In this document: piece by piece, positions 22,160 through 56,141 of the stretch
Position numbering within the stretch: position 1 is the first letter of the stretch
Layout: every line of letters starts with the position of its first letter
NCBI RefSeq assembly: GCF_025698545.1
Contig: NC_068572.1
Coordinates: 558,001-622,000, forward strand
DNA from: Gossypium raimondii
Taxonomy: Eukaryota; Streptophyta; Magnoliopsida; Malvales; Malvaceae
Length of the DNA stretch: 64,000 nucleotides
Direction: 5' to 3'
Program-made: the position numbers and the translations under genes
Notes under the pieces: model-generated
The model's input: the letters and a program-made list of their open reading frames with translations, nothing else
Database searches by the model: none
What the model was told of the DNA's origin: nothing

Positions 22160-23204
22160 TTCGGGAAAATGGTGTCTTGTATTATAAAAAAAATTCAAAA
22201 GTTTGTATGGGCTGAGAGTGGCTGGCCCAATTCATAAGAGGTTTTAATATGACCTTAGTCCCTGTACTCTTCAGAGTTTTGAACTTTAGTCCCTTTACTT
22301 GTTTGATTTGAAAATTAAAATCTTATTTATAACACTGGTAATTAATTTTCATTAAATTTTAAAAATAAAAATTTAAAAATTAAAAGCCAACATATATTCA
22401 ATATAGTAGAAGTTAATTAATTGTGTTAGCGATTGAATTTTAAATCGGAAAAATAAAGAAATTAAATTCTTGAAAATTAAAGTAAAGTGATTGGATTTAA
22501 AAATCCAAGAACACAAGGACTAAATTAAATACATCTGTAGTGATATAATCTTGACAAAGTTCATAAATCTCATAATCTATTAGGAATTTTTTAAAATATA
22601 TAAAACCATATAAATTTGTAATATATAGAGAATCTATTTGTTTTAATAAACCTGTTGAATCAAACAAATCACACATTCTCGATTGAATCGGTCTTACTTA
22701 ACCTAATGAATTTTAACACTCATTTACAATACATAAGAATTATATTTTGATATAATTCATATGAAACGCTTATACATAATATATTGATTTAATTCAATTT
22801 TCACAAATTGTTAATTTCAACATTATGCCTTACATATTGCATATATAGATAATTATCCTTCTCAAATATAAAAAAATGAAACCAAAATTCCATGTTATAC
22901 ATTAAACCTCGAATCAAATTTTTATGTGCATAATTACAATAAATTGAAATTTACGTATCAAATTATTATTTGTACGAAAATTCATGTATATTTTGAAAAT
23001 AAAATATTGTCATCATTGAATCTAACCTCTGTTTCTTACTCTTTCTTAATTTTCCAATACCCTAGTTTAATAGTAGCCTAGATTTCAATAAGTTTAGGTT
23101 CGGGTTTTGATCAATTCAAATTTGAGCTCTTTTTTAAAGATAGTCATTTGTGTTTAGATTGTTTTAGTTTCAAATAGCTTCAAATTTGGATAGTTTTAAA
23201 TTTG
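22160..23204. other. AT-rich 5' flank of COX7a copy A, no gene
   Basis: Homologous to about 25430-26350 behind copy B, with many indels. It should contain the copy A promoter near its start. No other feature is recognised. Confidence 0.5.
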
Positions 23205-23632: not shown

Positions 23633-26350
23633 ATCAATTTTGAAACATGTAAATCATCTTCAAACATAAGTGATAAACACTAAGACCTTTTTTGTTTAGG
23701 AACTTCAATTCACTTATCATATTGAGATATATATTCATGTTTACCAAAGATTAAACAACTCAAAATCCAAATCCAAATCCAAATTATGCAATAATAATCA
23801 TAAAATATCATGTTGAATCCTTGAGCTTCTTATCATTTAGCTTTCAAGAGAATCCAAAACCAAACTAAAAAACATAACCCCAAAGGGTATCTTTTAAGAT
23901 CTCCATTTGGCATAAAAACCAAACAATTATTAGAGCAAACAAACAAGCAATTTCATGCTATAATGAAACCCAAAAATGAAAAACATGTCTTCTAACCATG
24001 AGTGAGAGCTCTCATTCCTTTTTTCCAATCCCATGAGACATGTTATAGATCCCTCGTCCCTGAAAAAAAAATAACAAGCACACAACATAAGCTATGGTTT
24101 CATTGATCTTTTATTCGGCAAACAGGAGGTTTTAAAATTGTTGTAAGATAGTTTTACAATTACGAATGAAACTCACGATTAAAAACAGGGAACTTGCTGC
24201 TAGAGCGGCGGGAATGGCGACAGATGTGATCTTATCGTAAGGACCTTTCAAGTAAGTGTGTTTATGGATGCCTTGAAAATATTTCTGATACTCGATAAGC
24301 TTTTCCCTAGGTCTGAATGGTACCTCTGACATCCTGCTGTCACAAAGTTAAACATTCGGCTATACATCGAATAAGAGAATAAGATTTTCCCAAAACTCCC
24401 TAAGCCTCAATCCAACTTATTCTCTTTCCCCAAATCAGCACATTCAAGCATAGTATCTATATTAATCTATTTTAACCAATAAAACAATTGAATTTACATT
24501 AACAAGCAGACATCCATAGTACTCGCATCAACAAAATACAAGATAAAACAGCAGCGACCCGTCTTCCCCCCTATTTTACAAAAGCTACATTAAACAAGGG
24601 CAAACAATACACTATAGCAAGGTTTTAAGAACCAGACTGGTGGTCAAACCAGTCAGGACACTGGTTTGCCGGTTCAACCGGTCCGTACCAGTTCCCGGGT
24701 CAACTGGTTAAATACCCTTCTCTGGACCAGTACCCCGGTCAGTCCAGTCTGCTTCAAACAACCTTGCAATATAGCCTAAAAGCCCCTACAAAGAAATGTT
24801 TTCATATATGCATACATTCTAACTCGAATAAGCTTAAAAACCTCTTCAATACTCGGTAACAAACCACATTGTATCAGTGCCCTTTTTCCTAAAGAAACGC
24901 AATAAGAACAGACAAAATGGGGATCAATAAACCTAGTTCAAACTCAATTTACAGTGCACCAGGGGGAGAATTTTATGAATATTTTGCTAGAACAAGGATG
25001 ATATGGTTTCAATTACTCATGGATTTACAATCTTAAAAAATTAATTTACACTATTTTGAACCAAAAAAAAAGAAAAGAAGCTAGGTTGATTGCTTTGTTC
25101 TTGAATCAATACATTCACAAGCCACGAATACCATAGACCGAATCCAATAAACCCAATTCTAATTACCAAAAAGAAACCCAAAATCAGGGAAAGCGTTTCC
25201 AGTAAATCAAATCAGCAGATTCAAAGATAAGAAAACTAAAAAAAAAAAAATCAATTCCTCAAAATTGAATTAAAGCGCATTTCGATACCAGATTCATGAG
25301 AAGAAGAAAAAAAATAATAAAAAGAATACCTGAGAGAAAATCAAGCTTGATTCTTCCTCTTCTTTCTTAGATTAGGGAAAAAAAACCCTAGAATTTCTAA
25401 ACGACTTTTTTGAGCCTTTAGGGATTGGGATTAAGTTCGGGAAAATGGTGTCTTATATTATAAAAATATACAAAAGTTTGTATGGGCTGAGAGTGGCAGG
25501 CCCAATTCATAAAAGGTTTTAATATGATCCTAGTCCATGTAGTCTTCCGATTTTTGAACTTTAGTCCCTTTACGATTTGAAAATTAAAATCCTATTAATA
25601 ACACCGGTAATTAATAGCGTTATCGATTGAATTTTAAATCTAAAAAAAAAATAAAAAGATTAAATTCTTGAAAATTAAAGTAGAATAATTGAATTTGAAG
25701 AGTCCGAATAGCACAAGTAATAATATCTTGTTAAAGTTCATAAATAGAGAAAATCTAATTTAAAAAAAAAATCAAAGTCTAGCAAAAAGAATTGTTTCAA
25801 TAAACTTACGGAATCAAATAAACCACATATTCTCGATTCAATCGGCCTTATTTAATTTAATGAATTTAACATAAAATCCACATGCAAATTAAAGTCTTGG
25901 TACAATTCATATAATTTTATAGCGTTTAACTCTGTTAATACACATCTCGATTTAATCCATATGTAATTTTCACATACCCTTAATATCATTATTGGTATAA
26001 CATTATGCTTTACATGTCCCACATGTATATAATTATTGTTATCAAATATAAAAAGAAAAATGAAACCAATAAAATTTCATATTACATATTTAAACTATAA
26101 ATCAAATTTTTACATGTATAATCACAATAAATCAAAATTCGCTTATTAAATTACTCATATTCTTCCTCTTTCTTAATTTTCAAATACCCTAAAACAAATA
26201 TACCCTAATAATAGCTTAGATTTCGAGTAGCAAACTTTGATCAATTCAAGTTTGAGTTATTTACGACTTTTTTTTTTCAAAATATTAGGTTACGTGTTTA
26301 AAGTCATTCGTGTTTAGATTATTTTAGTTTCAAATCAATTCAAGTTCACA
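23632..26350. repeat. COX7a tandem duplication, unit B
   Basis: Second copy of the block at 20349-23200, in the same orientation. The left boundary is sharp and abuts the DUF247 fragment. The right boundary fades near 26350, where shared CAAATCAATTCAAG and GTGTTTAGATT motifs end. Confidence 0.8.
24012..24332 (-). CDS. COX7A: Cytochrome c oxidase subunit 7a-like (COX7a), copy B
   Basis: Same gene structure as copy A: exons 24177-24332 and 24012-24059 with conserved splice sites. Product 67 aa, ending HGIGKKE (copy A ends KKD). Otherwise residues 1-52 differ from copy A only at position 4 (Val for Ala). The 5'-UTR exon and its donor (25328-25330) are also kept. Both copies thus look functional. 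The role is as for copy A: a small inner-membrane subunit of complex IV, with a basic N-terminus in the matrix or at the membrane surface and one membrane span at about 38-56. Nothing in the sequence shows which copy is the main expressed one. Confidence 0.87.
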
Positions 26351-26552: not shown

Positions 26553-26557
26553 ATTTG

Positions 26558-27797
26558 TGTTGAAATCATTTTTTTTGACAAAACAGGGTCGACTCGAATT
26601 TTGAAAACAAAAACGAAAACGGGAGTCGTCACCAATCCTTTTCGATGAGGTGTGATCGGATCACCTCGAAAATTTGTTGTTTTTAATAAACGATTTGATT
26701 TCATTAAAACAACGATTTTAGTCCACGAGATTCAAAAAAATAGGTTCGGGAGTCGATTACGTACGAGGAAGGATTAGCACCCTCGTAATGCCCAAAAATT
26801 GGTACTTAATCGATTAGTTAAAGTCTTAATGTCGAAAATTGAAAATTTTGAAGAGATTTAAAATATGATCCTTTATTTTAAAAAACTTATATAAATTAAG
26901 TTACTCGTGAAGACCCTCTCATTTCAGAAAGAAAAAATGTCACACCCAATGAGCTAGGGTACGATATTTTACCTCTTCAGAAATGAGCTTGTCTAAAAAC
27001 TAGTGCAATAAAGTTAAAAGGGTATTCAATTGTTTAAGTCATATAAAAAAATTGCAACTCAATATGTTAGGGTACGATTTCTCGTAATACTAAACATTGA
27101 ACATTGTCTTTATTTATTTTGTTATTATTATTTTTGAAAATCCTCGTCTCAAGAGAACAACACGTCATATCCAATGCATTAGGATACAATGTATTGAATC
27201 CTCGATCATCAGTTTTTATTTACGTTTTTATTTTAAAGAGCAATCTCGATTACGTAGATTCAACGAAGAAAATTGGAACCCAATACGTCAGGGCTCAATT
27301 CTCTCGAAGATCCCAAATACCGAGTATTGCTTTTATTTTGAAATTTTTCCGTTTTTTGACAAATCCGAATAAAAATGGATGTAACGTAATGATAATGATG
27401 ATAATGTAAATAAAATAATACAAGCAAGGGCTATAAAATAAAATAAATAAAAGACAAACTAATATAGTAAACCATAGCAAGCATATAAGCAATAAAATTA
27501 CAACATTCATTCTAAATATAGTGAATACGAATAAAGAAATGAACAAAGAAAATGAATAAGATTATGGAAATGTAAAAAGATATATACATATGTATACACA
27601 CAAAATCATAGGAATAATAAAATATATGTACATACTTTATCATTATATATGAAAAGGTAAGTAAATAAATGTGTATATATATATATATATATATATGCGT
27701 AGAAATATGCATACATGCAGGCCTATATATATAAATTATAAAAGGTATATAAAAGTATGTTTTGTATACATGTATTTAAAAATAAGTATACGTATAT

Positions 27798-27834
<37 letters not shown>

Positions 27835-28140
27835 TATGCATACATAAATTACAGGCTATATAAATATGCACGTAGACATATATGTGTATAAAACATAGAA
27901 TACAAATATATATAAGTACACATGAGTTATAAAACGAAAAAATATCCACAAGAAAATATATATTTTAAAAGCATAAAGAATATATAAGCGTATATACTTA
28001 TGGAAATAGGACATGGGTATAGATATATAAGTATACAAGTAATACAATATGAAGAATATATAAGTATATACATTGTAAAAATATAGAGTACAAATATACA
28101 TATAGGTACGTGCATGTATATAAAAAAGATTATAAAACAT

Positions 28141-28183
<43 letters not shown>

Positions 28184-29640
28184 AAACATGTATGTGTATA
28201 CATATGATTACAAGGAATATAAAGAATGCATATATATGATAAAAAAAATTGCAAGCATATATCTATATAAAAAATGAAATAACATAATATATATAAGCAT
28301 TTATGTGAACTAAAAATATAAAATAGCCATGATGATAAATAACAGAGAGAGTTAGACTAAATAGAATAAAAAAATAAAACTTGGGGTTGAATTGCAAATA
28401 AAATCGAAGGGGAGGGACCATATCGAACGCGCGAATAACATAGAGGGGCTGGAAGGGAAATTTTCTCTTATCCTCTAACAGCGTCGTTATAATAGGACCA
28501 AAATGCAATCGCGAAAAAAGTCATAGGGTAAAACTAAAAAATGAAAACACTTAATTGGAAAGCATAAAAGAGCAGAAGGACCTGGCGCATAAATATCCCT
28601 TTCACCGTAGAAACACGCGGATCCTGAGGGTGGACGGGTCAGGTCGGTTTGGCCTCCCTAAAACGACACTGTTTTGGCGCCTGGGGAGACAACTTAAACG
28701 ACGCCGTTTCTCACGAGCTATAAAGGCCCAAATTTTTTCAAAAAATTCCATTTTAACCTAGCTTTAAAAAAAACCTAACAAATCCTCTCCCCTCCCCTTA
28801 AAACAAATGACCCTTAGACCCTGGCCTCCGCCGCGCCGCCTCTACGGCCATTGGCCAGAGTTGAGTGAAACGGGCCTTTCAGCCCACACTTCACGGTGTC
28901 CCTGAAGGCCAGGCCTCCTCGACCGTGAGACCGAAGGATAAAGGAAAGGGCTCCTCTCCCTGTTCGACGCTGGCAACAGCGAAGACAGGCTCCGGCACCG
29001 GCTTTCAAAAAATAGGTATTCCTTTTTCCTTTTCGTCTCGTTTTTATTTAAAAGGGTTGTAAAAAAATAAATAAAAAAATAAACAAACATAAAAATAAAA
29101 AAGAAATAAAGAAAAAGTATACATGAACAGAAAAATAAAGGCAGTTAAACTGGAGTCAACCTTTTTAAAAGCTTTTGCTCTGTTCTTTTTTTATTAATCA
29201 GTCGTTGCAAAAAAAGAAGCCAATACAAAGGTGGTGCTCGGCTTTTTATAGCCGATTGGTTGCTATTTTTTATTATTTTTGCTGTTTACGTGTGTTCTCC
29301 ATTTTTCAGGGTTGATGGGCGACGATCGACGTGACAGTGACGGTGGCAGACTCGCGGCGGCCAGGAGACCAAAGGTCCAAAGCATGCAGCGGCACTTAGG
29401 GTTTCAAAAACTGAAACCCTAGGCTGACTTTAGTTTTCGAGTTTGGGCCTCGGTTAGGGTTAGGCTAGTTGGGCTCCAGGTTAATTTGATTTGGGCTTGA
29501 GAAATTTGGGGTTGGGGTTAATTAATTTTGGGTCTGTTTGTAATTGGGTTTAAGTTGGGTTAAAATGTAATTGGGTTGTTTTATTTTTTTGGTATGGTTT
29601 GGCTTATTTGGTGCGGGCCCGGGCTAAATTGGGCTTATAC
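26558..29640 (+). repeat. Left LTR of the fossil (about 3.1 kb)
   Basis: Starts TGTTGAAATC after the target repeat. The 3' limit is placed near GGGCTTATACA at about 29642, before sequence that looks like the primer-binding/leader zone. The LTR holds long TA-rich microsatellite runs (27672-27698, 27798-27832, 28148-28182) and a more GC-rich stretch at 28600-29000. Its first 758 bp recur inverted at 36824-37581. The right end of this LTR is uncertain. Confidence 0.6.
27672..28182. repeat. (TA)n microsatellites inside the LTR
   Basis: Three runs of alternating T and A of about 26-36 bp lie in a region of about 750 bp made mostly of TATA/CATA motifs. Low-complexity open frames on both strands here are not genes. 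Confidence 0.85.
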
Positions 29641-29744
29641 AGCTGCCACTCTTTATTCGTTATCGTGTAACGAGAACAGAGCAAAGACTAAGAAAGACTA
29701 ATTCCCGGTCTCGCCGAGTCTTGACTTCTTGGTGCTCATCTTCT

Positions 29745-30520
29745 CTTTCAATGTAGCTTTATTCCAGTCCACTGTGTCTTGTTGCTTCGATCCACTTCAC
29801 TAAACTTTAGAGAGATCTGATTTGTAGCTTCAATCTTCTTCACAGCAACTTCAGAGGTACGAGATTCATAGTTTTAGTCTGCTTCACTATAATGTCAAGG
29901 AGATAAGACTTGTTATGGTGTGATCCGCTCTACTTCAACTTCAGAGAGATAAGATCCATCATTTTAATCCGTTTCATTGCAACTTTAGGAGATAGGATTG
30001 GATGCGATCTGCTCTACTGCAACTTTAGAGAGATAAGATATGTGGTTTCAATCCGCTCCACTGCAACTTCAGAGAGATAGGATTTATAGCTTCTGTCTGT
30101 TTGCCAGGGAAGTAAGATTCGCTATTGTAGCTTCAATCTGTTCCACTATACCGCTAGGGAAATAAGATTTGTTGTTGTAGGTTCAATCTATTCCACTGTA
30201 ATGTCAAAGAGATAGGACTGGTGTCGTCAATCTGCTTCACTGCCAGTACATGAAGACAAGATCTGTTGTTTTTAGTCTGCTCTGCTGCAAACTCAGGAGG
30301 CAAGACTGGTGTTTTCGATCTACTTCACTGCTAGTACAGGAAGACAAGATCTGCTATTTTTAGCCTTCGACCTACTCTGCTGCTGCTTAGGGAGATAAGG
30401 CTAATGGCTTAAATCTGCTTCCCTACTACTTTGGAAAGATAAGATTCACCGTCTTTGATCTGTAATCTTCAACCTACTCCACTGCTACTCAGGGAGATAG
30501 AACTAATGGCTTCACCGATT
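29745..30520. repeat. Degenerate tandem repeat in the element leader
   Basis: About 12-14 imperfect units of about 50-65 bp share the pattern CTTCAATCTGCTCCACTGCAACTTCAGAGAGATAAGATTTGTTG in pieces (for example TCCACTGCAACTTCAG, GAGATAAGATT). The units vary in length. It lies between the LTR and the first coding part and is non-coding. Confidence 0.65.
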
Positions 30521-30779
30521 TGTTCTCTAGAGAACATGACCCGTATAATGAACCTAATTATGCCTAATGATTAAGATGTCATGATAAAAAAATGAATCAA
30601 ATGCTCCTAACTAGACATGTATGCATGAATACAAAATGTCATGAAAATGATCCCTCAATGTTTGAGTTGTTATTGCCCATTGTTCATCAAGGTTTTAATC
30701 ACTGACGCCCTTTTGTTCAGCTAGTATCTTCAACAGAAAAAGCCAAAGAAATAGTCGCAACTTAGACTAATCTTTCTCA

Positions 30780-32260
30780 AATACTTCCATTGGGGTACGT
30801 TGATAAAGCGGTTACAAATTTGTTTGATCGACTACAAAAGAGTCACGCATGTCCCAGTAAATTTGGCCGAGACATTTAAATCCTTGAGTGCGTGTCGAAG
30901 CACGGGTGAGGGAAGATTCATTGGATGCACACAGTTGTTACTAGTTTGGTTCCATAGTCATTTTTGGAAAATGGATAAAGTCTCCTATCGAGTATTTTCA
31001 GAAAACTACTCTCCGTTGAAAGAACTAACAACGACACCGAGATGTGACAACATTACTGTGGAAAAATAGATCGCAATTCTTCAAAATCTTAAAGACGAAG
31101 ATGTTGAATGAAAAGCCCCATGGTTAGTGCCCGACGAGATCTTGTATCATGTGAGGACTTCGATTGAGTCCCTTTACTCAGGATATGGGGAGCCGTTGGC
31201 TATACGTCTTTATTGGTACTAAAACAGTATAGGTCGAGACAGTTCGTACCTGTAACCCAAGGGCTATCATAGAGTGAGTTTTCGTATAAAGATGATGGTT
31301 ACAAGAAGAAGATTCGAGAAGTGACCAATGCTTGGAAGCAAATCCACAGAATGAAGAGACTTGCCGTTGGACCGATGGTGACCTCCGAATATGAGTGGTG
31401 GAGTAAGAGGGTCAATGACAATATACCCAAGCTGAGAGAAGAAGATGTTCGACCGATAGATAAGTATTTGCAAGTGGTCTCATTTGAGATAGAAATCATA
31501 AAACAATATTTTGAAAAAAAGAATTTGGAGTTGGGAAAGAAAATAGAGGAATTAGAGGAAGAAAAAATGCAACTAGGACTGGATGTCGACGTTCAAAAGT
31601 TAGAGACCGACAAATGGAGAAAAGAAAGAATAAGGCTAAAGAAGATTTGGACAGCCTGAAGGTGGACTACAAAAAGTTGCGTAGGTCAATAAGAATGGCC
31701 AGTTTGGGTAAGACGTGGAACAATGGCGACAAGAAATCCAAGAGAAAAAGACTAAAGTTGATCAATGGGAAAAGAAGTTCCAAGATGCTCAAGCTCGAGA
31801 AGTTGTTTTGGAAAAGAGTCTATTAGAGTGCCCAAATAAGAAAATGGGATTGAAAACTCGAGTAACCGAGTTAGAAAAGTCGCTCAACCAGTATCGTAGT
31901 TGTAATTCTACGATCGAGTTAAAAACAAGCTTAGGCAAAATTGAAAAATTGAAGGGACGAGTAGGAGAGCTCGAAAACGCATTGCAAAACAGTAAACTCC
32001 GAATAGAGCTTCTTGAGAGAAGTAATGAACAGTGACAAGAGCAATTCCATCGGTCTCAAGATCAGATTAGAGAAAGAAATTATATTATGGGCGAGGAGGT
32101 GGCTCAAGTAAGCGAAGTAGCCGATCATCTACAAACCCTAGCAGTTCAGGCTGATGTATTAAGTTTGAAGTATGAATCAGAATCGAACCGAGGCTGAGAA
32201 TTAGCTTGACTTCTTAGGAAGGTCAAGGCTTTGAGTATAAGGGCAAAGCCATATATGTAA
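30780..32260 (+). pseudogene. Upstream coiled-coil ORF region of the LTR fossil, broken
   Basis: Part of the fossil, upstream of gag. The stretch carries an N-terminal part with EYEWWSKRVNDNIPKL, then long Lys/Glu-rich heptads typical of a coiled coil. Similar extra ORFs before gag are, as I recall, frequent in large plant gypsy elements. It is broken several times. Confidence 0.6.
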
Positions 32261-32409
32261 TCTATTTTATGTAAAGAAATTTCTTTTCTAGTAAAGTTTT
32301 TCTAATGAAATTGAATCAGAGTCAATACCTCTTTTTTTGCATTCATTCATCTGCATTATATTTCATTATATGCATTAAGTATAATAAAATGACCCTAATA
32401 AACTAAAAT

Positions 32410-34370
32410 TATGACAGTTATCCTCGAATATCCTTACGGCACAAGAAAGAAAACAAAAGTAATGAATCAACGGTTAGAAAGATTGGAACAAATACAGAAA
32501 GAAATGCAAGATAAGATGCAAGAATAATTGGATAAAATCCAACAAGATGCGCTGGAATCCCAAATAACCATAATGAGCTAACTGGCACAATTATATGCTG
32601 ATAAAGGAAAGAGCCCTGTAATCAATTCGGGAGTTGATCAGAATGACCCTGTTTATCCTCCAGGTTTTGTCCCAACGAACACTCAGTCACAACTGGATAT
32701 GTGTCAACAAGGAGTGCGTGTTCACATTAGACCTCAATGCCAAGTTGGCGTTTCGGCACCGATGAACTTTCAGACAGACTCGGGTTCTAACCCGAGAGAT
32801 AATCCAGCAAACCCCGTTGTCCTTGATTTGGACGATGTAGTTGAAGTAGAGAAAGCAATGGTGGATTTACCAAAGCAACTTGAAGATAGGTGTAGGTGGC
32901 TAGAGGAAAAGTTCAAAGCAATGGAAAGTGCTGATTCCCGTTGCAATATTGACGCAAAATACCTAAGTTTGGTCCCTGACTTAGTTCTCCCGCCTAAGTT
33001 TAAAATGCCAGAATTCGAAAAGTATAACGGGACTAGTTGTCCTAAAGCCCATATTACCATGTTCTGTAGAAGGATGACGGGATATATCGACAATGATCAA
33101 TTGTTAATCCACTGTTTCCAAGATAGTTTGATCGGAGCGGTGGCCAAATGGTATAACCAACTGAATCGTGGTCAAATTAACTCATGGAAAGATTTGGCAC
33201 AAGCCTTCATGAAACAATATAGCCACACAACGGACATGACGCCCGATAGGATCACACTACAAAACATGAGAAGAAACAAAATAAAAGCTTTAAGTAGTAC
33301 GCCTAGAGATGGAAAGAGGTGGCAATCCAAGTCCAGCCGCCTCTTCTGGAAAAAGAAACCACAATTCTTTTCATTAATACTCTAAAAGCCCCGTTCATCA
33401 AACATATTTTGGGAAGTGCCACTAAGAGCTTCTCAAACATATTGATGACTGGTAAAATAATCGAAAATACGGTAAGAAGTGGTAAAATAGATACGGGGGA
33501 AACTCTAAAAGACCGGCCTCGAGGAAGAAAGAAGGCGAGGTGAATAATATGAGTGCATACAACAAGGGATACTAAAAGCCAATTACCGTTGACCCACCAA
33601 GGACAGTAGCTACTAGTCATCAATGCCCCCGAGGTAAGAGCCCAACTCGAGGTCAGAAAGACCCCAATTTACGCCTATCTCGATAATTTATAGGGAGCTA
33701 TATCAAAATCTATTTGATGCATATGTGGTAGCCCCTTTCTATCTGAAACCCATGCAAGCCTCGTTCCTTAAGTGGTATGACACAAACGCCCAGTGCGAAT
33801 ATCATATAAGGATAACAGGGCATTCGATCGAAAATTGCACCGCGTTTAAGAAGTTGGTCGAAAGGTTCATTAAAATGGATATCGTAAAGTTCGATGACCC
33901 CTCTGGACCTAACGTAACAGGAAACCCGTTACCTAATCATTCTGACAAAGGGGTAAAGGCGGTAGCTGAGAGTGGAAGTAAGAGAATCAAGGTAGACATA
34001 ATGGAGGTAAGAACCCCAATGAAATGTGTTTAGGAGCAGATGGTACGTAGAGGTCTAATCGCGCGAGATTCAATTGAAAGGCCTAAAAGAACAGAAACAT
34101 ACTGTGAGTTCCATGCCATGGAGGGTTATAATATCCAGGAATCTGCAAAGTTCAGGACCATAGTACAAAATCTGGTGGATAATAAGGAGATAGAAATTTA
34201 TAAAGAGAGTAAAGAATTTGAAGAACGAGAGGTCTGCGCCTTAGAAGAGAGACCCGCTGAAAGGGTCCAAAAGGTCAATCAGCCAGTGGTGATTATTTCA
34301 CGGCTAAGGAGCGATGAAGCAGGGATTCAAATGCCACCAAAAGTCATAATCCAAAGACCTGTATAATTTT
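32410..34370 (+). pseudogene. gag region of the LTR fossil, broken
   Basis: The gag core is recognisable (LVLPPKFKMPEFEKYNGTSC, VAKWYNQLNRGQINSWKDL, AFMKQYSH), followed by NAQCEYHIRITGHSIENC, a zinc-knuckle-like segment. Family Ty3/gypsy. It is broken several times. Confidence 0.75.
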
Positions 34371-34589
34371 CCTATAAGGATAACGAAAAGGTTCCTTAGA
34401 ATTATGACTGTAACGTAACAATTCTAAGAGAGAAGAACCCGATAAATACTTCAGAAGAGAGCAATGATGATGGCTGTTACACACGTAGCGGAAAACATTA
34501 CAATCCAGCAATTTCGAAAGCAGAGCCTGTAAAAAGAAAATGCGGTCCGATTTGAATCACTTGTCAATGAGCCAATAACGGAGAATGAA

Positions 34590-35313
34590 GCTAGAGAGTT
34601 TTAAAAAATTTTAAAGCACAGCGAATACAGTGTTGTAGAGGAGTTACATAAGCAGCCAGCTCGTATCTCGGTGCTAGCGTTACTCTTAAGCTCGGAAGTA
34701 CATCGCAGCGCGTTAATGCTGGTATTGAATGAAACATATGTTGCTTATGACATCTCTATGAACAAGTTAGACCGTCTAGTTGGTAACGTAAGTGCTGATA
34801 ACTTCATTTTCTATAACGATGATGAAATACCACCGGGAGGCATGGGATCGACCAAAACTCTGCACATTACAACCCGCTGCAAGGGGTACACATTGCCGGG
34901 AGTATTAATTGATAACTGATTAGCGCTAAATGTCTTGCCTTTATCCACCCTGAATAGGTTGCCCGTGGGCAGCTCAAATATGAAAACGTATCAGAACATA
35001 GTGAGAGCGTTCGATAGTACTGAAAGAAGAGTAATGGGAAGAATTGAAATTCCCCTTTTAATCATCCCAAGCACATACGAGATATATTTCCTGGAAATGG
35101 ACATCAAACCTTCTTATAATTGTTTATTAGGAAGGCATTGGGTTCATTCAGCAGGAGCAGTACCCTCATCGCTGCATCAAAAGTTAAAGTTGATAACAGA
35201 GGGTCGGCTGGTGACGATCAATGCAGAGGAGGATATCATTGCGACTGTAACTAGTGACACACCTATATTGGGACAAAAGAAGAAGCAATTGAATGTTCAT
35301 TCTGATCTCTGGA
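34590..35313 (+). pseudogene. Aspartic protease region of the LTR fossil, broken
   Basis: Retropepsin-like features are visible: the active-site neighbourhood around VLIDN and PLSTLNRLP, then MDIKPSYNCLLGRHWVHSAG. The protease ends abruptly at the inversion junction near 35313. No polymerase domains follow. Broken. Confidence 0.7.
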
Positions 35314-36823
35314 ACTCACAGTATGTTCCTGTCCTTTTAGGCCTTTCAACTGAATCTCGAACGATTAGACCCCTACGTACCATCTGCTCCTAAACACATT
35401 TCATTGGGGTTCTTACCTCCATTACGTCTACCTTGATTCTCTTACTTCCACCCTCGACTACCGTCTTTAACCCTTTGTCAGAATGATTAAGTAACGGGTT
35501 TCCTGCTACGTTAGGTCCAGAGGGGTCATCGAACTTTACGATACCCATTTTAATGAACCTTTCGACCAACTTCTTAAACGCGATGCAATTTTCGATCGAA
35601 TGTCCCGTTATCCCTATATGATATTCGCACTGGGCGTTTGTGTCATACCACTTAGGGAACGGGGGTTGCATAGGTTTCAGATAGAAATGAGCTACCACAT
35701 GTGCATCAAATAGATTTTGATATAGCTCCCTATAAGTTATCGGGATAGGCGTAAATTGAGGTCTTTCTGACCTCGAGTTGGGCTCCTGCCTCGGGGGCAT
35801 TGATGACTAGTAGCTACCGTCCTTGGTGGGTTAACGGTAATTGGCTTTGAGTATCCCTTGTTGTATGCACTCATATTATTCACCTCGTATTCTTTCTTCC
35901 TCGAGGTCGGTCTTTTAGAGTTTTCACTTGCATATATTTTACCACTTCTTACCGTATTTTTTATCATTTCACCGGTCATCACTATGTCTGAGAAGCTCTT
36001 AGTGATACTTCCCAAAATATGTTTGATGAACGGGGTTTTTAGAGTATTAATGAAAAGCATTGTGGTTTCTTTTTCCAAAAGAGACGGCTGGACTTGGATT
36101 GCCACCTCTCTCCATCTCTAAACGTACTGCTTAAAGCTTTTATTTTGTTTCTTCTCAATGTTTTGTAGTGTGATCCTATCGGGCGTCATGTCCGTTATGT
36201 GGCTATATTGTTTCATGAAGGCTTGCGTCAAATCTTTTCATGAGTTAATATGACCACGATTCAGTTGGTTATACCATTTGGCCACCGCTCTGATCAAACT
36301 GTCCTGGAAACAGTGGATTAACAATTGATCATTGTCGATATATCCCGTGATCCTTCTACAGAACATGGTAATATGGGTTTTAGGACAACTAGTCCCGTTA
36401 TACTTTTCGAATTCTGGCATTTTAAACTTAGGCAGGAGAACTAAGTCAGGGTACCTCCACCCTCCCTTGGAGGTACTTCCTGAGTCTTTTTCCAAGTAAA
36501 GCCTCTTTTCCAGCTATCATTTGTAGACCCATTCTCGTTGTTTTGGGTGTGGGGATCTTACTCCCTTCCATAATTAAGGTTGCATTTACAAATTCCAGAG
36601 ATCGGAATGAACATTCAATTGCTTCTTTTGTCCCTATATACGATGTGTCACTAGTTACAGTCGCAATGATATCCTCCTCTGCATTGATCGTCACCAGCTG
36701 ACCCTCTGTTATCAACTTTAACTTTTGGTGTAGCGATGAGGGTACTGCTCCTGCTGAATGAATCCAATGTCTTCTTAATAAACAATTATAAGAAGGCTTG
36801 ATGTCCATTACCAGGATCATTAT
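35313..36823 (-). pseudogene. Inverted arm: gag and protease fragments in opposite orientation
   Basis: 35313 to about 36455 is the inverted counterpart of about 32960-34110 (gag). About 36455-36823 is the inverted counterpart of about 35095-35313 (protease) plus about 150 bp not present in the plus arm. The junction at 35313 carries GGAA shared by both sides, and the order of parts is scrambled relative to a normal element. Broken. Confidence 0.75.
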
Positions 36824-37581
36824 TTGGGATCTTCGAGAGAATTGAGCCCTAACGTATTGGGTTCGAATTTTCTTCGTTGAATCTAAGTAATCGAGATTGC
36901 TCTTTAAAATAAAAACGTAAATAAAAACTCATGATCGAGGATTCAATACATTCTATCCTAATACATTGGATATGACGTGTTGTTCTCTTGAGACGAGGAT
37001 TTTAAAAAATAATAATAATAAAATAAATAAAGACAATGTTCAATGTTTAGTATTATGAGAAATCGTACCCTAACGTATTGAGTTGTAATTTTTTATATGA
37101 CTTAAACAATTGAATACCCTTTTAACTTTATTGCGCAAGTTTTTAGACAAGCTCACTTCTGAAGAGGTAAAATATCATACCCTAGCTCATTAGGTGTGAC
37201 ATTTTTTCTTTCTGAAATGAGCGGGTCTTCACGAGTAACTTAATTTATATAAGTTTTTTAAAAATGAAGGATCATATTTTAAATCTCTTCAAAATTTTTA
37301 ATTTTCAACATTAAGACTTTAACTAATCGATTAGGTACCAATTTTTGGGCATTACGAGAGTGTTAATCCTTCCTCGTGCGTAATCGACTTCCGAACCTGT
37401 TTTTTTAAATCTCTTGGACCAAAATCGTTGTTTTAATAAAATCAAATCGTTTATTAAAAATAACTATTTTTCGAGGTGATCCAATCACACCTCATAAAAA
37501 AATATTGGTGGCGACTCCCGTTTTCGTTTTCGTTTTCAAAATTCGAGTCGACCTCGTTTTGTCAAAAAAATGATGTCAACA
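36824..37581 (-). repeat. Inverted partial LTR (first 758 bp) at the right end of the fossil
   Basis: Read on the minus strand it matches 26558-27317 from TGTTG to AAGATCCCAAATA with roughly 5% differences. It is cut on its inner side at about 36823, where protease sequence begins. Confidence 0.85.
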
Positions 37582-37586
37582 ATTTG

Positions 37587-38205
37587 GGTTAAAAAACACT
37601 TTTTCACCACAATTTTGATCCCAAAAGCTTTTGCGGTCAAAAAGCACTTTTGGCTTCTCAAAAGCAATGAAGAACAGGGCCTCAATCTCGAAAGTAAAAC
37701 AACTTGAACAAGTAACCAATGTTGGAACTGGATAGGACAAACCAATTGAACTCAAGAGTTGAGTGTTGAATTTTCCATTAGTTAATGTTAAACTAGAAAC
37801 CAGAAGCTTGACTGGTTTGAGCTCCAACATTGCAAGTAACCAGAAATTACCAAAACCCGAAATGACCCAACCCGCCTAATTGATAGTACTAATGACAAGA
37901 ATATCTAAAATCTAGAACATGTGTTTAGCTTAATAAAAACGACTACCATAGAATTATCGAACCACCGGCAGATCGCCACCGTATTATCATAGCTAGAACA
38001 TGATAATAGAATCAACAATCATTCAACAAAACTCAACCATGTATTCCAGAAAGCCGCAATTATAACCAAAATGTTAATGTCATTAACTAAAACTTTCTCA
38101 AACAAAATCCGAGAAGAGCTAAAACCATATCCACCTACAAAATCCAAAACATTGAAAACTTACATACGAGGGACCCTAAAAAGCCTTGATATTTGCTTTG
38201 CTTGC
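37587..38205. other. Flank and 3' region of P2 copy A
   Basis: 37640-38205 matches 41515-42001 (downstream of P2 copy B). Shared motifs include CCAGTTTGAGCTC-like sequence, GTTTAGCTTAAT and ATAGCTAGAACATGAT. It probably contains the 3' UTR of P2 copy A. No further gene. Confidence 0.5.
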
Positions 38206-52910: not shown

Positions 52911-55900
52911 GTCACTGTAACACCCCTTACTCGTATTCGACACCGGAATAGGGTACGAATTACTAGAATACATACACTTGTAAAGTATTAAATCGAGTTA
53001 CAAAATTTCATTCGAATTAAGGTTTTCCAAATTGTTAACATTCTTTTATAAATCTTCACGTTATAACTCAAAATATTATAATTATAACAAATAGGGCCTA
53101 CGAGACCCAATACTTACTCATGTAATTCAATGCTTCTTTTCCATTTCGTTTAATTCATAATTTCTCATGTTCACAATTCAAATAAATTTCTCAACCCAAT
53201 ATACATTTCAGTACCACAATAATTCTTTTAATTCAAAACATATCACTAGAAACTTCCATTTAATTCACGTACAATTCAATATCATTAAGTTCAATACTAA
53301 TACATATTCACTATTTAACTCAACGTTTATCGATTTTACCATTTATTAACACATTTATAAAATTCTTAGTAGTGCAAAGCAAACATCACTTAAGCTTAAA
53401 TAACAACATCGAATCAACTCATCATCCTCATTCCTCATTTTACTCTTCAAGTGTGAATTTAGTATTTCATTTTCTTTCCACATCCATTTCCTCTGAATAT
53501 CACACAAAACAATAACATATCAAATATAATTCACAATTTGTATTACCAACATGAGTTACCCCATATACCATTCATGGCCTTACTTCATACCAAATCATAT
53601 ACCAAATATACCATACATACATACTATGAAACTTTATTTTCTCACATGATCCATAACTAATAATGCACAATTATAAACATCATTTCTTTTCAATCGTTTG
53701 TCGATTATAAACGAGCATATGGCCAATTATACACAAATCATTCATATGTTCTTCCAATTTTCCTCCTCCTCCTCTCCATTCCACATCCTTAATGTGTATA
53801 ACACACTTAAACAACATTAACTACAATTTCACTATTCACTCACATGTATATTCAAAGCTGTCTATTCGAGTTAGAGTCACTAAATTATTTTTATCTGGAG
53901 CTACAAAGCTCCAAATTAAGATCCGTAAATTTTCCCTGAAACTAGACTCACATATCTTCTTACCATAAAATTTTCAGAATTTTTAGTTTGGCCAAATAGT
54001 AAATTTTATTCTTTAAAGATTCCCCTGTTTCACTATTCGACAGCTCTGACCCCTCTTCACTAAAAGTTAATTATCTCTTTGTACAGAATTCAAATGATGC
54101 TTCCGTTTTTTTCTATTGAAAATAGACTCATTGAGAAATTCAACCGTGTAAATTTCAGACCATAAATATTTTTGTACAATTTTTAGTGATTTTCCAAAGT
54201 CAGAACAGGGGATTTCAAAATCATTCTGACCCAGTCTCACTAAAATTCCAATATCTAAAAATATATAACTTCTTTGGCCATTCTTTCTATTTTATGTGAA
54301 AGTACACTCATTAAGATTTAATTTCATGTCTTATTCAACCACTAACTCAATTTCTATAATTTTTGGTGATTTTTCAAACTAACATCACTGTCACTGTCCA
54401 AATCTATTCTATTCCAACATCCCTCATTCACATAGCACTATAACCATTTATTTTATAACACAATACAAGACTTCATCACTTCAGTCACTCTTTCGCAACT
54501 TATCACGTTCCAATCACATACTCATATCTCACTGAACATGTCGGTATAACAACAAATATTTGGGGTTTTTCACACAGTACTACCCATGTTACTTTTATCA
54601 TTCAATACACGTAGTAGCCTCCACATAGTACTACACACGTGATCAAGTTTTACGGTTCACGTAGTAGCCTTCACATAGTACTACACACGTGACCAAAACT
54701 TTTCGATACACATAGTAGCCTTCACTTAGTACTACACATGTGACCATTATTTATCGATACACGTAGTAGCCTTCACACAGTACTACACACGTGTTCATCG
54801 ATACCTTATTCAAATCTTTACCATTTCGACAGTTCCACAAAGACTCTTACTTTCCAATAATTTACAATTTCTCCATATCACATCATAATATCAACTTTCC
54901 ACTCCACTCCATAACCAAATTAATAATTCGATTTAAATCACTTCAACCATTACTTGCAGTTGGTATATTCATAAACCAAGCTGATTTTAAACAAATCAAC
55001 TATCAATTTCAAATTTCTAACTTTAATATAACTATTTCATATCCAACCCTTTCGCATATATTGTCACGAAATATAACAAAAATAATTATAATAATTTATT
55101 AATTACATACAACTTTTTTTGGTGCAACAATATAGAAATTTAGCAATTTAGTCTTTAATCTTTTCTTTTATCCAATCAAGGTCGATTCCACTTCTTTCTT
55201 GAAATATAATAACACATTTGACTTATTTAACATGCACATTCATCAAAATAATCCTTAACTCAAACTTTGGCAAAATTATAATTTTGCCCCTAAACTTTTG
55301 CATATTTACACTTTTGCCCCAACGCTCGGAAATTAAAATTCATCTCTTATTCTTATGTTTTATTACATACTGAACATTTTTCCCTTCTATGGCAATGTCA
55401 AATTCCCACTCTAACACTTATTTATGAACATTAGGTATTTTTACCGATTATGTCTTTTACTCGTTTTCACTTAAAATCGCTTAGCAAAAGTTGTTTAACA
55501 TAATTTCTAGCTTTATAATCTATCATAAAACATCAAAATAAACACATTTCACCTATGGGTATTTTTCCAAATATAAACCCTAGGTTAAATTATTGCTAGA
55601 ATAAGCAAAATAAAGTTACCGAGACTCCAAAAACGTAAATAACATTAAAAACGGGGCTTAGAATCACTTACTATGGAGCTTGGAAGCTTGAAAACCCTAA
55701 AAATGGCTTCCCCCCTTGCTGATTTCGTCTAAATGAAGAAGATGGGCACAATTTGTCATCTTTTTCCCTTTTAATTCATTTTAATTACTAGATTACCAAA
55801 TTGCCCCTAACTTAAAAATTTCCTATTTCACTTATCTCATGCCCATTTTTGTCTACCAACTTAACCAATGGTCTAATTACCATATAAGGACCTCCAATTT

Positions 55901-56141
55901 AAAGTTTCATAACAATTGAACACCTCTAACATATAGAACTCAACTTTTACACTTTTTACAATTTAGTCCTTTTGACTAAATTGAGTGCCCAAACGTCGAA
56001 ATTTTCGAACGAAATTTTCACAAAATCATTTCGTGAAATCGTAGACCATAAAAATATAAGAAAAATAAATTTTTCATTGTCGAATTTTTGGTCCCGAAAC
56101 CACTGTTCCGACTAGTCCCAAAATCGGGCTATTACAGTCAC
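52911..56141 (+). mobile_element. Solo LTR 2 (plus orientation) with GTCAC target duplication
   Basis: The LTR spans 52916-56136 (3.2 kb), begins TGTAACACCCCTTACTCG and ends CAAAATCGGGCTATTACA. A perfect GTCAC target duplication lies at 52911-52915 and 56137-56141. No coding part is present, so this is a solo LTR fossil of a probable gypsy family. It shares the end motif GAAACCACTGTTCCGA with solo LTR 1. A 51-bp tandem repeat lies at 54568-54800. Confidence 0.85.
54568..54800. repeat. 51-bp tandem repeat (about 4.5 units) in solo LTR 2
   Basis: CACGTAGTAGCC starts near 54609, 54659, 54710 and 54761, followed each time by TTCACA.AGTACTACACACGTG. The units contain an imperfect inverted repeat (CACGTAGTA / TACTACACACGTG). 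Confidence 0.8.

What the first reader, a model, noticed from the sequence alone, without database searches (positions are those of the whole stretch)
26553..37586. LTR fossil whose two outer ends are the same LTR end in inverted orientation, with a matching 5-bp target duplication
Integration normally joins the 5' end of one LTR and the 3' end of the other. Here both ends, read inward, begin TGTTG[A/C]ATCATTTTTTT. ATTTG stands immediately outside each, and homology stops exactly at the TG. So the composite seems to have been inserted in a single event as a molecule with two U3 ends. Such a molecule could come from strand switching during reverse transcription or from self-integration before insertion. 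Later inversion would need breakpoints exactly at the target repeats.
Basis: partly seen in the sequence, partly recalled or inferred. Interest (0 to 1): 0.72.

Follow-up and report, generated by a model that had tools for sequence, protein, structure and literature searches.

The report
Jumping gene inserted with mirrored ends
A dead plant retrotransposon was apparently inserted with the same LTR end on both sides, and two other insertions in the same genome look alike, which suggests that a copying error during reverse transcription can still yield DNA that the element's integrase accepts.

Summary
Window 26558-37581 (11,024 bp) has the same LTR terminus, inverted, at both outer ends and a perfect 5-bp target duplication ATTTG. 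In several relatives a primer-binding-site-like motif adjoins this terminus, so both ends are U5 ends, not U3 ends. The element belongs to a Tat-like Ty3/gypsy family. On the + strand it reads: LTR reversed, 3' internal region reversed, gag-pro forward, gag reversed, pro reversed, LTR U5 end forward. The three arm pairs do not differ measurably in divergence (K 0.052-0.065), and the two pairs put in trees are sisters among the copies sampled.

The same genome holds two more two-U5 insertions with perfect 5-bp duplications: C6 (GGCTT) and C9 (26 kb, CCCAT). For C9, the joined flanks with one CCCAT match 40 of 40 scored copies of the target repeat, so that composite entered as one unit. Three other outward U5 pairs fail the test.

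Best explanation: a DNA strand that starts at the minus-strand 5' end (U5), switches template polarity an odd number of times, and runs off a minus-strand 5' end. Against it: the window's own empty site could not be shown, and a repeat in its right flank stops at the insertion point. No U3/U3 control was possible.

The parts
26553..26557 (.). left copy of the 5-bp target duplication ATTTG
   Evidence: sequence
26558..29641 (-). A: complete LTR, reverse complement, U5 end outward; U3 start at about 29641
   Evidence: U5 end: PBS-like motif next to this terminus in relatives; U3 start and PPT-like tract by comparison with the ordinary element on C8:39.47 Mb
29642..30789 (-). B: PPT-like tract and 3' internal region, reverse complement, contiguous with A as in an ordinary minus-strand DNA
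30788..30793 (.). J1: polarity switch, B to C, overlap 0-2 bp
   Evidence: relatives' matches end or begin here; of 40 scored hits (519 candidates) only the window spans it
30790..35314 (+). C: 5' internal region with broken gag and pro pieces, forward
   Evidence: Retrotrans_gag E 2.9e-6 in 32582-33382
35310..35314 (.). J2: polarity switch, C to D, 5-bp overlap
   Evidence: of 40 scored hits (97 candidates) only the window spans it
35310..36451 (-). D: second gag copy, inverted repeat of 32974-34113, K 0.065
36446..36451 (.). J3: jump without polarity change, D to E, about 3-bp overlap
   Evidence: no genome search was made for this junction
36446..36816 (-). E: second pro copy, inverted repeat of 35089-35314 plus about 147 bp further downstream
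36816..36817 (.). J4: polarity switch, E to F, no overlap
   Evidence: of 40 scored hits (2377 candidates) only the window spans it, but all the others are LTR matches
36817..37581 (+). F: last 765 bp of the LTR, forward, U5 end outward; inverted repeat of 26558-27319
37582..37586 (.). right copy of the 5-bp target duplication ATTTG
   Evidence: sequence

Best explanation
This is the fossil of one integration event of an aberrant reverse transcript of a Tat-like Ty3/gypsy LTR retrotransposon. The + strand begins as ordinary minus-strand DNA primed at the primer-binding site: U5', R', U3', PPT', 3' internal. It then switched template four times: near 30789 onto a minus strand, so that sense gag-pro was copied; at 35310-35314 back to antisense gag; at 36446-36451 along antisense pro; and at 36816 onto a minus strand again, whose 5' end it copied to run-off. 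Three polarity changes leave a minus-strand 5' end, hence a U5 terminus, at both ends. Integrase joined the two U5 ends to one target and made the usual 5-bp duplication. Shown: the anatomy, the U5 identity of both ends, the duplication, arms of indistinguishable divergence, and two further two-U5 insertions, one with its empty site. Inferred: that the window flanks were neighbours, that the switches took place during reverse transcription, and which templates were used.
For: U5 identity: in 3 of the 16 plus-strand copies outside the window that one search shows correctly (L014, L035, L040) the terminus abuts the reverse complement of a PBS-like motif; so do termini on C8:39.47 and C9. For the 12 minus-strand copies that script printed the inner side, which says nothing. 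An ordinary relative (C8:39.47 Mb) has U3 start TGTAATAGG, U5 end TGTCAACA and 5-bp duplication GCAGT. Window A-B follows the order of normal minus-strand DNA. K2P: 0.059+-0.009 (LTR), 0.065+-0.008 (gag), 0.052+-0.016 (pro). In trees C/D (support 0.999) and A/F (0.987; 301 bp only) are sisters. Recurrence: C6:7555238-7566568, GGCTT both sides; C9:30474011-30500025, CCCAT both sides. C9 empty site: 40 of 40 scored of 2449 candidates match across the joined flanks at 91-93%: 33 over 1-315, 5 over 1-314, 2 over 3-315. 3 of 6 outward U5 loci pass the duplication test; by chance P(>=3 of 6) = 1e-7, or 3e-5 for >=2 of 5 without the window. Overlaps at junctions: window 0-2, 5, about 3 and 0 bp; C9 6; C6 5 at one of two. 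In C6 the switch point is a quasi-palindromic 59-bp piece lying inverted. Arm divergence of about 6% speaks against an assembly-made inverted duplicate.
Against: The window's left flank has no second copy but a 45-bp match nearby, so no empty site could be shown. The right flank begins at 37583 with a dispersed repeat that continues leftward in 4 of 6 copies compared, but the window's left flank does not carry the rest; one copy (L049) starts about 11 bp from the same place. Joining the left flank improves the match to none of 7 copies beyond shuffles. So the flanks may not be original neighbours. Overlaps at junctions also fit end-joining. In C9 the arm pairs differ in divergence (0.042+-0.005 and 0.063+-0.007) and two LTR types are present, so its history is more complex. 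No U3/U3 control was possible. Only one assembly was seen. The C9 empty-site alignments were not read base by base (loci not cut out), and they are other copies of the target repeat, not an allele.
Confidence: 0.62

Rival explanations
1. Two or more linear cDNAs, or fragments of them, were joined head-to-head by host end-joining before integration; integrase then used the two free U5 ends.
For: Overlaps of 0-6 bp at junctions fit alternative end-joining. C9 holds two LTR types, as if from two elements.
Against: The window needs four separate joins of internal fragments, while the outermost pieces still end exactly at U5. In C9 a 3' internal region is contiguous with the internal LTR, so that piece is not a finished cDNA.
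Confidence: 0.2
2. Two independent insertions in opposite orientation, followed by deletion and inversion; the ATTTG match is chance.
For: The repeat at the right flank stops at the insertion point and the left flank lacks its other part. Three other outward U5 pairs without matching duplications exist.
Against: Chance of a 5/5 match is 0.0017. The arms are sisters of indistinguishable divergence. C9 has the same end arrangement and an empty site.
Confidence: 0.12
3. An ordinary insertion was altered later by an inversion with one breakpoint exactly at the right target duplication.
For: Inversions between inverted repeats are common in principle; C9 may have undergone one between its PBS regions (inference).
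Against: Read inward, the two LTR termini (TGTAATAGG and TGTTGACACC) share only TGT, so there is little substrate for homologous exchange; the exact breakpoint would have to recur in C6 and C9.
Confidence: 0.04
4. Self-integration (autointegration) of a cDNA before insertion.
Against: It joins an LTR terminus to an internal site (recalled). None of the four window junctions is at an LTR terminus.
Confidence: 0.02

Closest known systems
Template-switching complexes of LTR retrotransposons (Sabot and Schulman 2007, PMC1950507; whole text read)
   Same: One integration event with a 5-bp target duplication; similar outermost LTRs; aberrant template switching proposed.
   Different: There the switch is between R regions of two RNAs and gives three LTRs sharing two cores, as I read it all in one orientation, so one U3 and one U5 outer end. 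Here polarity is switched, the outer LTRs are inverted and both outer ends are U5.
Tat-like Ty3/gypsy LTR retrotransposons (lineage name recalled)
   Same: LTR, PBS-like and PPT-like layout, gag-pro; relatives with RT, two RNase H domains and rve integrase.
   Different: The window copy has no detected pol and has inverted outer LTRs.
Retroviral/Ty1 autointegration products (recalled)
   Same: Rearrangement of element DNA before insertion, inversions included.
   Different: The junctions here are not at LTR termini.
DIRS elements (recalled)
   Same: Inverted terminal repeats.
   Different: DIRS elements use a tyrosine recombinase and make no target duplication; here there is a 5-bp duplication and a relative has an rve integrase.

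Membership tests
Tat-like Ty3/gypsy LTR retrotransposon | Domain order gag-pro-RT-RNaseH-second (archaeal-type) RNaseH-integrase | tested here: inconclusive
   L057 gives RVT_1, RT_RNaseH(_2), RVT_3 in this order and L058 gives rve beyond RVT_1; the window copy gave only Retrotrans_gag in 1 of 4 pieces. That a second RNase H marks the Tat lineage is recalled.
Tat-like Ty3/gypsy LTR retrotransposon | 5-bp target duplication, TG..CA LTR, PBS and PPT | tested here: met
   C8:39.47 Mb element and window; PBS and PPT recognised by eye, no tRNA matched
Sabot-Schulman template-switching complex | Flanking target duplication from one event | tested here: met
   ATTTG on both sides; empty site not shown for the window
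Sabot-Schulman template-switching complex | Outermost LTRs highly similar | tested here: met
   K 0.059 over 760 sites
Sabot-Schulman template-switching complex | Third, internal LTR between two complete cores | tested here: not met
   No internal LTR in the window; C9 does have internal LTRs
Sabot-Schulman template-switching complex | Outer LTRs in direct orientation | tested here: not met
   Inverted
Autointegration product | LTR terminus joined to an internal site | tested here: not met
   Four junctions, none at an LTR terminus
DIRS element | No target duplication; tyrosine recombinase | tested here: not met
   5-bp duplication; rve in relative L058

The most novel reading that the evidence does not exclude
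Two-U5-ended retroelement DNA is a recurrent class of natural integration product. Minus-strand copy-back in virus-like particles makes molecules that end in U5 on both sides, and the element's integrase inserts them with a normal 5-bp duplication, so one U3 and one U5 end are not needed for paired-end integration. Such insertions may make up a few per cent of this family, and tools that require direct LTRs would miss them.
Probability: 0.45. Interest if true: 0.75.

Novelty: new variant of a known kind. Interest (0 to 1): 0.6.

Why it matters
If true, the genome keeps a record of aberrant reverse transcription products that were still integrated. It bears on two points. First, the integrase of a plant Ty3/gypsy element would join two U5 ends with a normal target duplication in nature. 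Second, polarity-switching reverse transcription would leave a directional signature (U5/U5, not U3/U3) that can be counted in any genome. Pipelines that look for direct LTR pairs would not call these insertions, or would mis-orient them.

Tried and rejected
Rejected: U3 ends (a PBS-like motif adjoins the terminus in relatives). Autointegration (no junction at an LTR terminus). DIRS-like element (duplication present). Assembly-made inverted duplicate (arms differ by about 6%, whereas the C4 pair, whose flanks are exact reverse complements over 57 bp, may be one).

Outward U5 pairs that failed the duplication test: C7:41481531/41494175; C9:4669264 or 4679303 with 4704070; C4:1822909/1856753.

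Led nowhere: the window flanks gave no empty site (copy L046 was but not in 59-60). The C6 flanks have no second copy (2 of 2 hits are the two halves of the locus itself). Literature: ten searches showed no title or abstract start on two-U5-ended insertions. What I saw was capped: 20 of 23, 10 of 18, 6 of 6, 20 of 80, 12 of 3360, 8 of 20, 0 of 0, 3 of 3, 12 of 20 and 7 of 7 papers. Passages only were seen of PMC5668417, PMC11054761 and PMC10462705.
Full report
Check of the observation. ATTTG stands immediately outside both ends (26553-26557 and 37582-37586), and both ends read inward begin TGTTGA. The first 762 bp and the last 761 bp form an inverted repeat, 94.3% identical over 760 sites. Two 5-mers match by chance with probability 0.0017 at this base composition. 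Two more inverted repeats lie inside: gag (32974-34113 with 35310-36451) and pro (35089-35314 with 36593-36816).

Which end it is. The window lies in a 750.8-Mb genome in 281 contigs (the numbered contigs C1-C13 that I met are each 48-63 Mb; a cotton D genome is my recalled guess, no name was given). One search scored 40 of 4472 candidates for the terminus and cut out 30 loci, 2 of them the window itself. Of the 16 plus-strand copies among the other 28, three (L014, L035, L040) have just outside the terminus the reverse complement of a PBS-like motif; for the 12 minus-strand copies my script printed the inner side, so they say nothing. The same motif adjoins the terminus at C8:39473206, C9:30484105, C9:30491432 and C9:4679303. 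I recognise the PBS and PPT by eye and recall; no call matched a tRNA. An ordinary element on C8:39.47 Mb has target duplication GCAGT, U3 start TGTAATAGG after a purine-rich tract, and U5 end TGTCAACA. The inverted terminus is therefore U5. In the window the U3 start lies inside at about 29641, followed by the PPT-like tract in reverse.

Anatomy. Compared with relatives the + strand reads: A, complete LTR reversed, 26558-29641; B, 3' internal region reversed, to 30789; C, 5' internal region with gag and pro forward, 30790-35314; D, gag reversed, 35310-36451; E, pro reversed, 36446-36816; F, the last 765 bp of the LTR forward, to 37581. At three places where both parts are listed 9-18 kb apart (C11:29.0, C2:32.4, C1:12.1 Mb), the parts corresponding to B and C lie in opposite orientation; in the window both lie on +. 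J1, J2 and J4 are spanned by no copy but the window among the 40 hits scored per search (of 519, 97 and 2377 candidates); all other hits are LTR matches, so that test is weak. J3 was not searched. Overlaps are 0-2 bp (J1), 5 (J2), about 3 (J3) and 0 (J4). Domain hits (10 pieces): Retrotrans_gag in one of four window pieces (E 2.9e-6); RVT_1, RT_RNaseH, RVT_3 and rve in five of six pieces of relatives L057 and L058; four pieces gave no hit (three of the window, one of L058).

One age. K2P is 0.059+-0.009 for A/F, 0.065+-0.008 for C/D and 0.052+-0.016 for C/E. In a gag tree of 15 rows (one copy entered twice, as L008 and L055) C and D are sisters (0.999). In an LTR tree of 38 rows (A, F and 36 distinct sequences; 4 identical rows of 40 dropped; 301 bp) A and F are sisters (0.987). 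The copies are the nearest ones that capped searches gave. At a recalled rate of 1.3e-8 per site per year the age is roughly 2-2.5 million years. A duplicate made by the assembler would be nearly identical.

Other cases. C6:7555238-7566568 has U5 at both ends and GGCTT on both sides. It is an almost ordinary element whose 5' LTR is cut short; after the cut follow a 59-bp LTR piece in inverted orientation (100% identical, quasi-palindromic, so that a weak direct match also exists) and a 136-bp inverted U5 piece. C9:30474011-30500025 (26 kb) has U5 at both ends and CCCAT on both sides. Its order is LTR', 3' internal', gag', PBS', LTR', 3' internal', then after a junction with 6 bp overlap partial LTR, PBS, gag start, 3' internal, LTR. 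Its four LTR ends fall into two pairs: outer left with inner right match over 1.9 kb (K 0.042+-0.005), inner left with outer right over 1.5 kb and beyond (K 0.063+-0.007), while members of different pairs match over about 320 bp only (K 0.09-0.11). In those 320 bp alone the outer left/inner right pair stands at 0.076+-0.016, not clearly lower. Two parents seem involved and a later inversion is possible. The joined flanks of C9 with one CCCAT match across the join in 40 of 40 scored of 2449 candidates at 91-93%: 33 over 1-315, 5 over 1-314, 2 over 3-315. The target was a dispersed repeat and the composite entered as one unit. The alignments were not read, since those loci could not be cut out. 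For C6 no second copy of the flanks was found.

How often. I pooled 257 U5-end places from the lists, with the C9 right end added by hand and one place on C120 left out. Within 45 kb there are 9 outward pairs at 6 loci, 2 inward pairs and 33 same-orientation pairs. The lists are cut at 100 rows (40) and are not a census. Of the 6 outward loci 3 have a perfect duplication (window, C6, C9:30.47) and 3 do not (C7:41.48, C9:4.67, C4:1.82). P(>=3 of 6) by chance is 1e-7, and without the window P(>=2 of 5) is 3e-5. Of the same-orientation pairs, 25 are 6-16 kb apart; 2 of these lie inside the C6 and C9 loci, and of the other 23, which may be ordinary elements, only C8:39.47 was checked for a duplication. 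So a few per cent is possible but rough.

How it works. In ordinary reverse transcription the U5 terminus is set by the 5' end of minus-strand DNA and the U3 terminus by the plus strand primed at the PPT (established knowledge). A strand that begins as minus strand, changes polarity an odd number of times and then copies a minus strand to its 5' end has U5 at both ends. The window (three changes), C6 (one) and C9 (one) all fit this rule; no PPT-defined outer end is needed. The integration step is not strange: retroviral integrases are assayed in vitro with a viral-end oligonucleotide and give two-ended, concerted products (passages and a figure legend of PMC11054761). The reverse-transcription origin is inferred.

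Results against. The window's left flank has no second copy but a 45-bp match nearby. Its right flank starts at 37583 with part of a dispersed repeat; in 4 of 6 copies compared (L044, L045, L047, L048) the repeat continues about 130-250 bp leftward, and the window's left flank lacks that part. One copy (L049) begins about 11 bp from the same place, so a short form exists. Some alignments crossed the join weakly, but against shuffled left flanks none of 7 copies gains from the real one. This leaves room for a flank change at the window locus, though not at C9.

What is known. Sabot and Schulman 2007 (whole text read) describe complexes with three LTRs and target duplications from R-region template switching. 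I found no description of inverted outer LTRs with both ends U5 in the listings of my ten searches. The listings were capped and only open-licence papers are held, so this is weak evidence of absence. The kind (template-switched LTR insertion) is known; the two-U5 form looks like a new variant.

Noticed in passing
G000 C4:1822909-1856753 (L065, L066): Two outward U5 ends whose flanks are exact reverse complements of each other over 57 bp: a roughly 34-kb inverted duplication or an assembly palindrome (only the two ends were read).
   Followed up: partly
window 37583-37687: Right flank begins with part of a dispersed repeat found at C5, C11, C12, C2, C7, C1 and C6; the window's left flank does not carry the remainder.
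   Followed up: partly
L061-L063, C9:30474011-30500025: The 26-kb composite carries two LTR types in crossed order, which suggests two parental RNAs and perhaps a later inversion between its primer-binding-site regions.
   Followed up: partly
L052, C6:7566379-7566437: A quasi-palindromic 59-bp LTR piece lies inverted at the switch point, 100% identical to the left LTR.
   Followed up: partly
window 54001-56000: Strong negative GC skew (-0.395); the neighbouring 2-kb steps are -0.230 and -0.107.
   Followed up: no
window 26001-26346 and 22821-23186: Two stretches left of the element resemble each other in direct orientation (66-76%).
   Followed up: no
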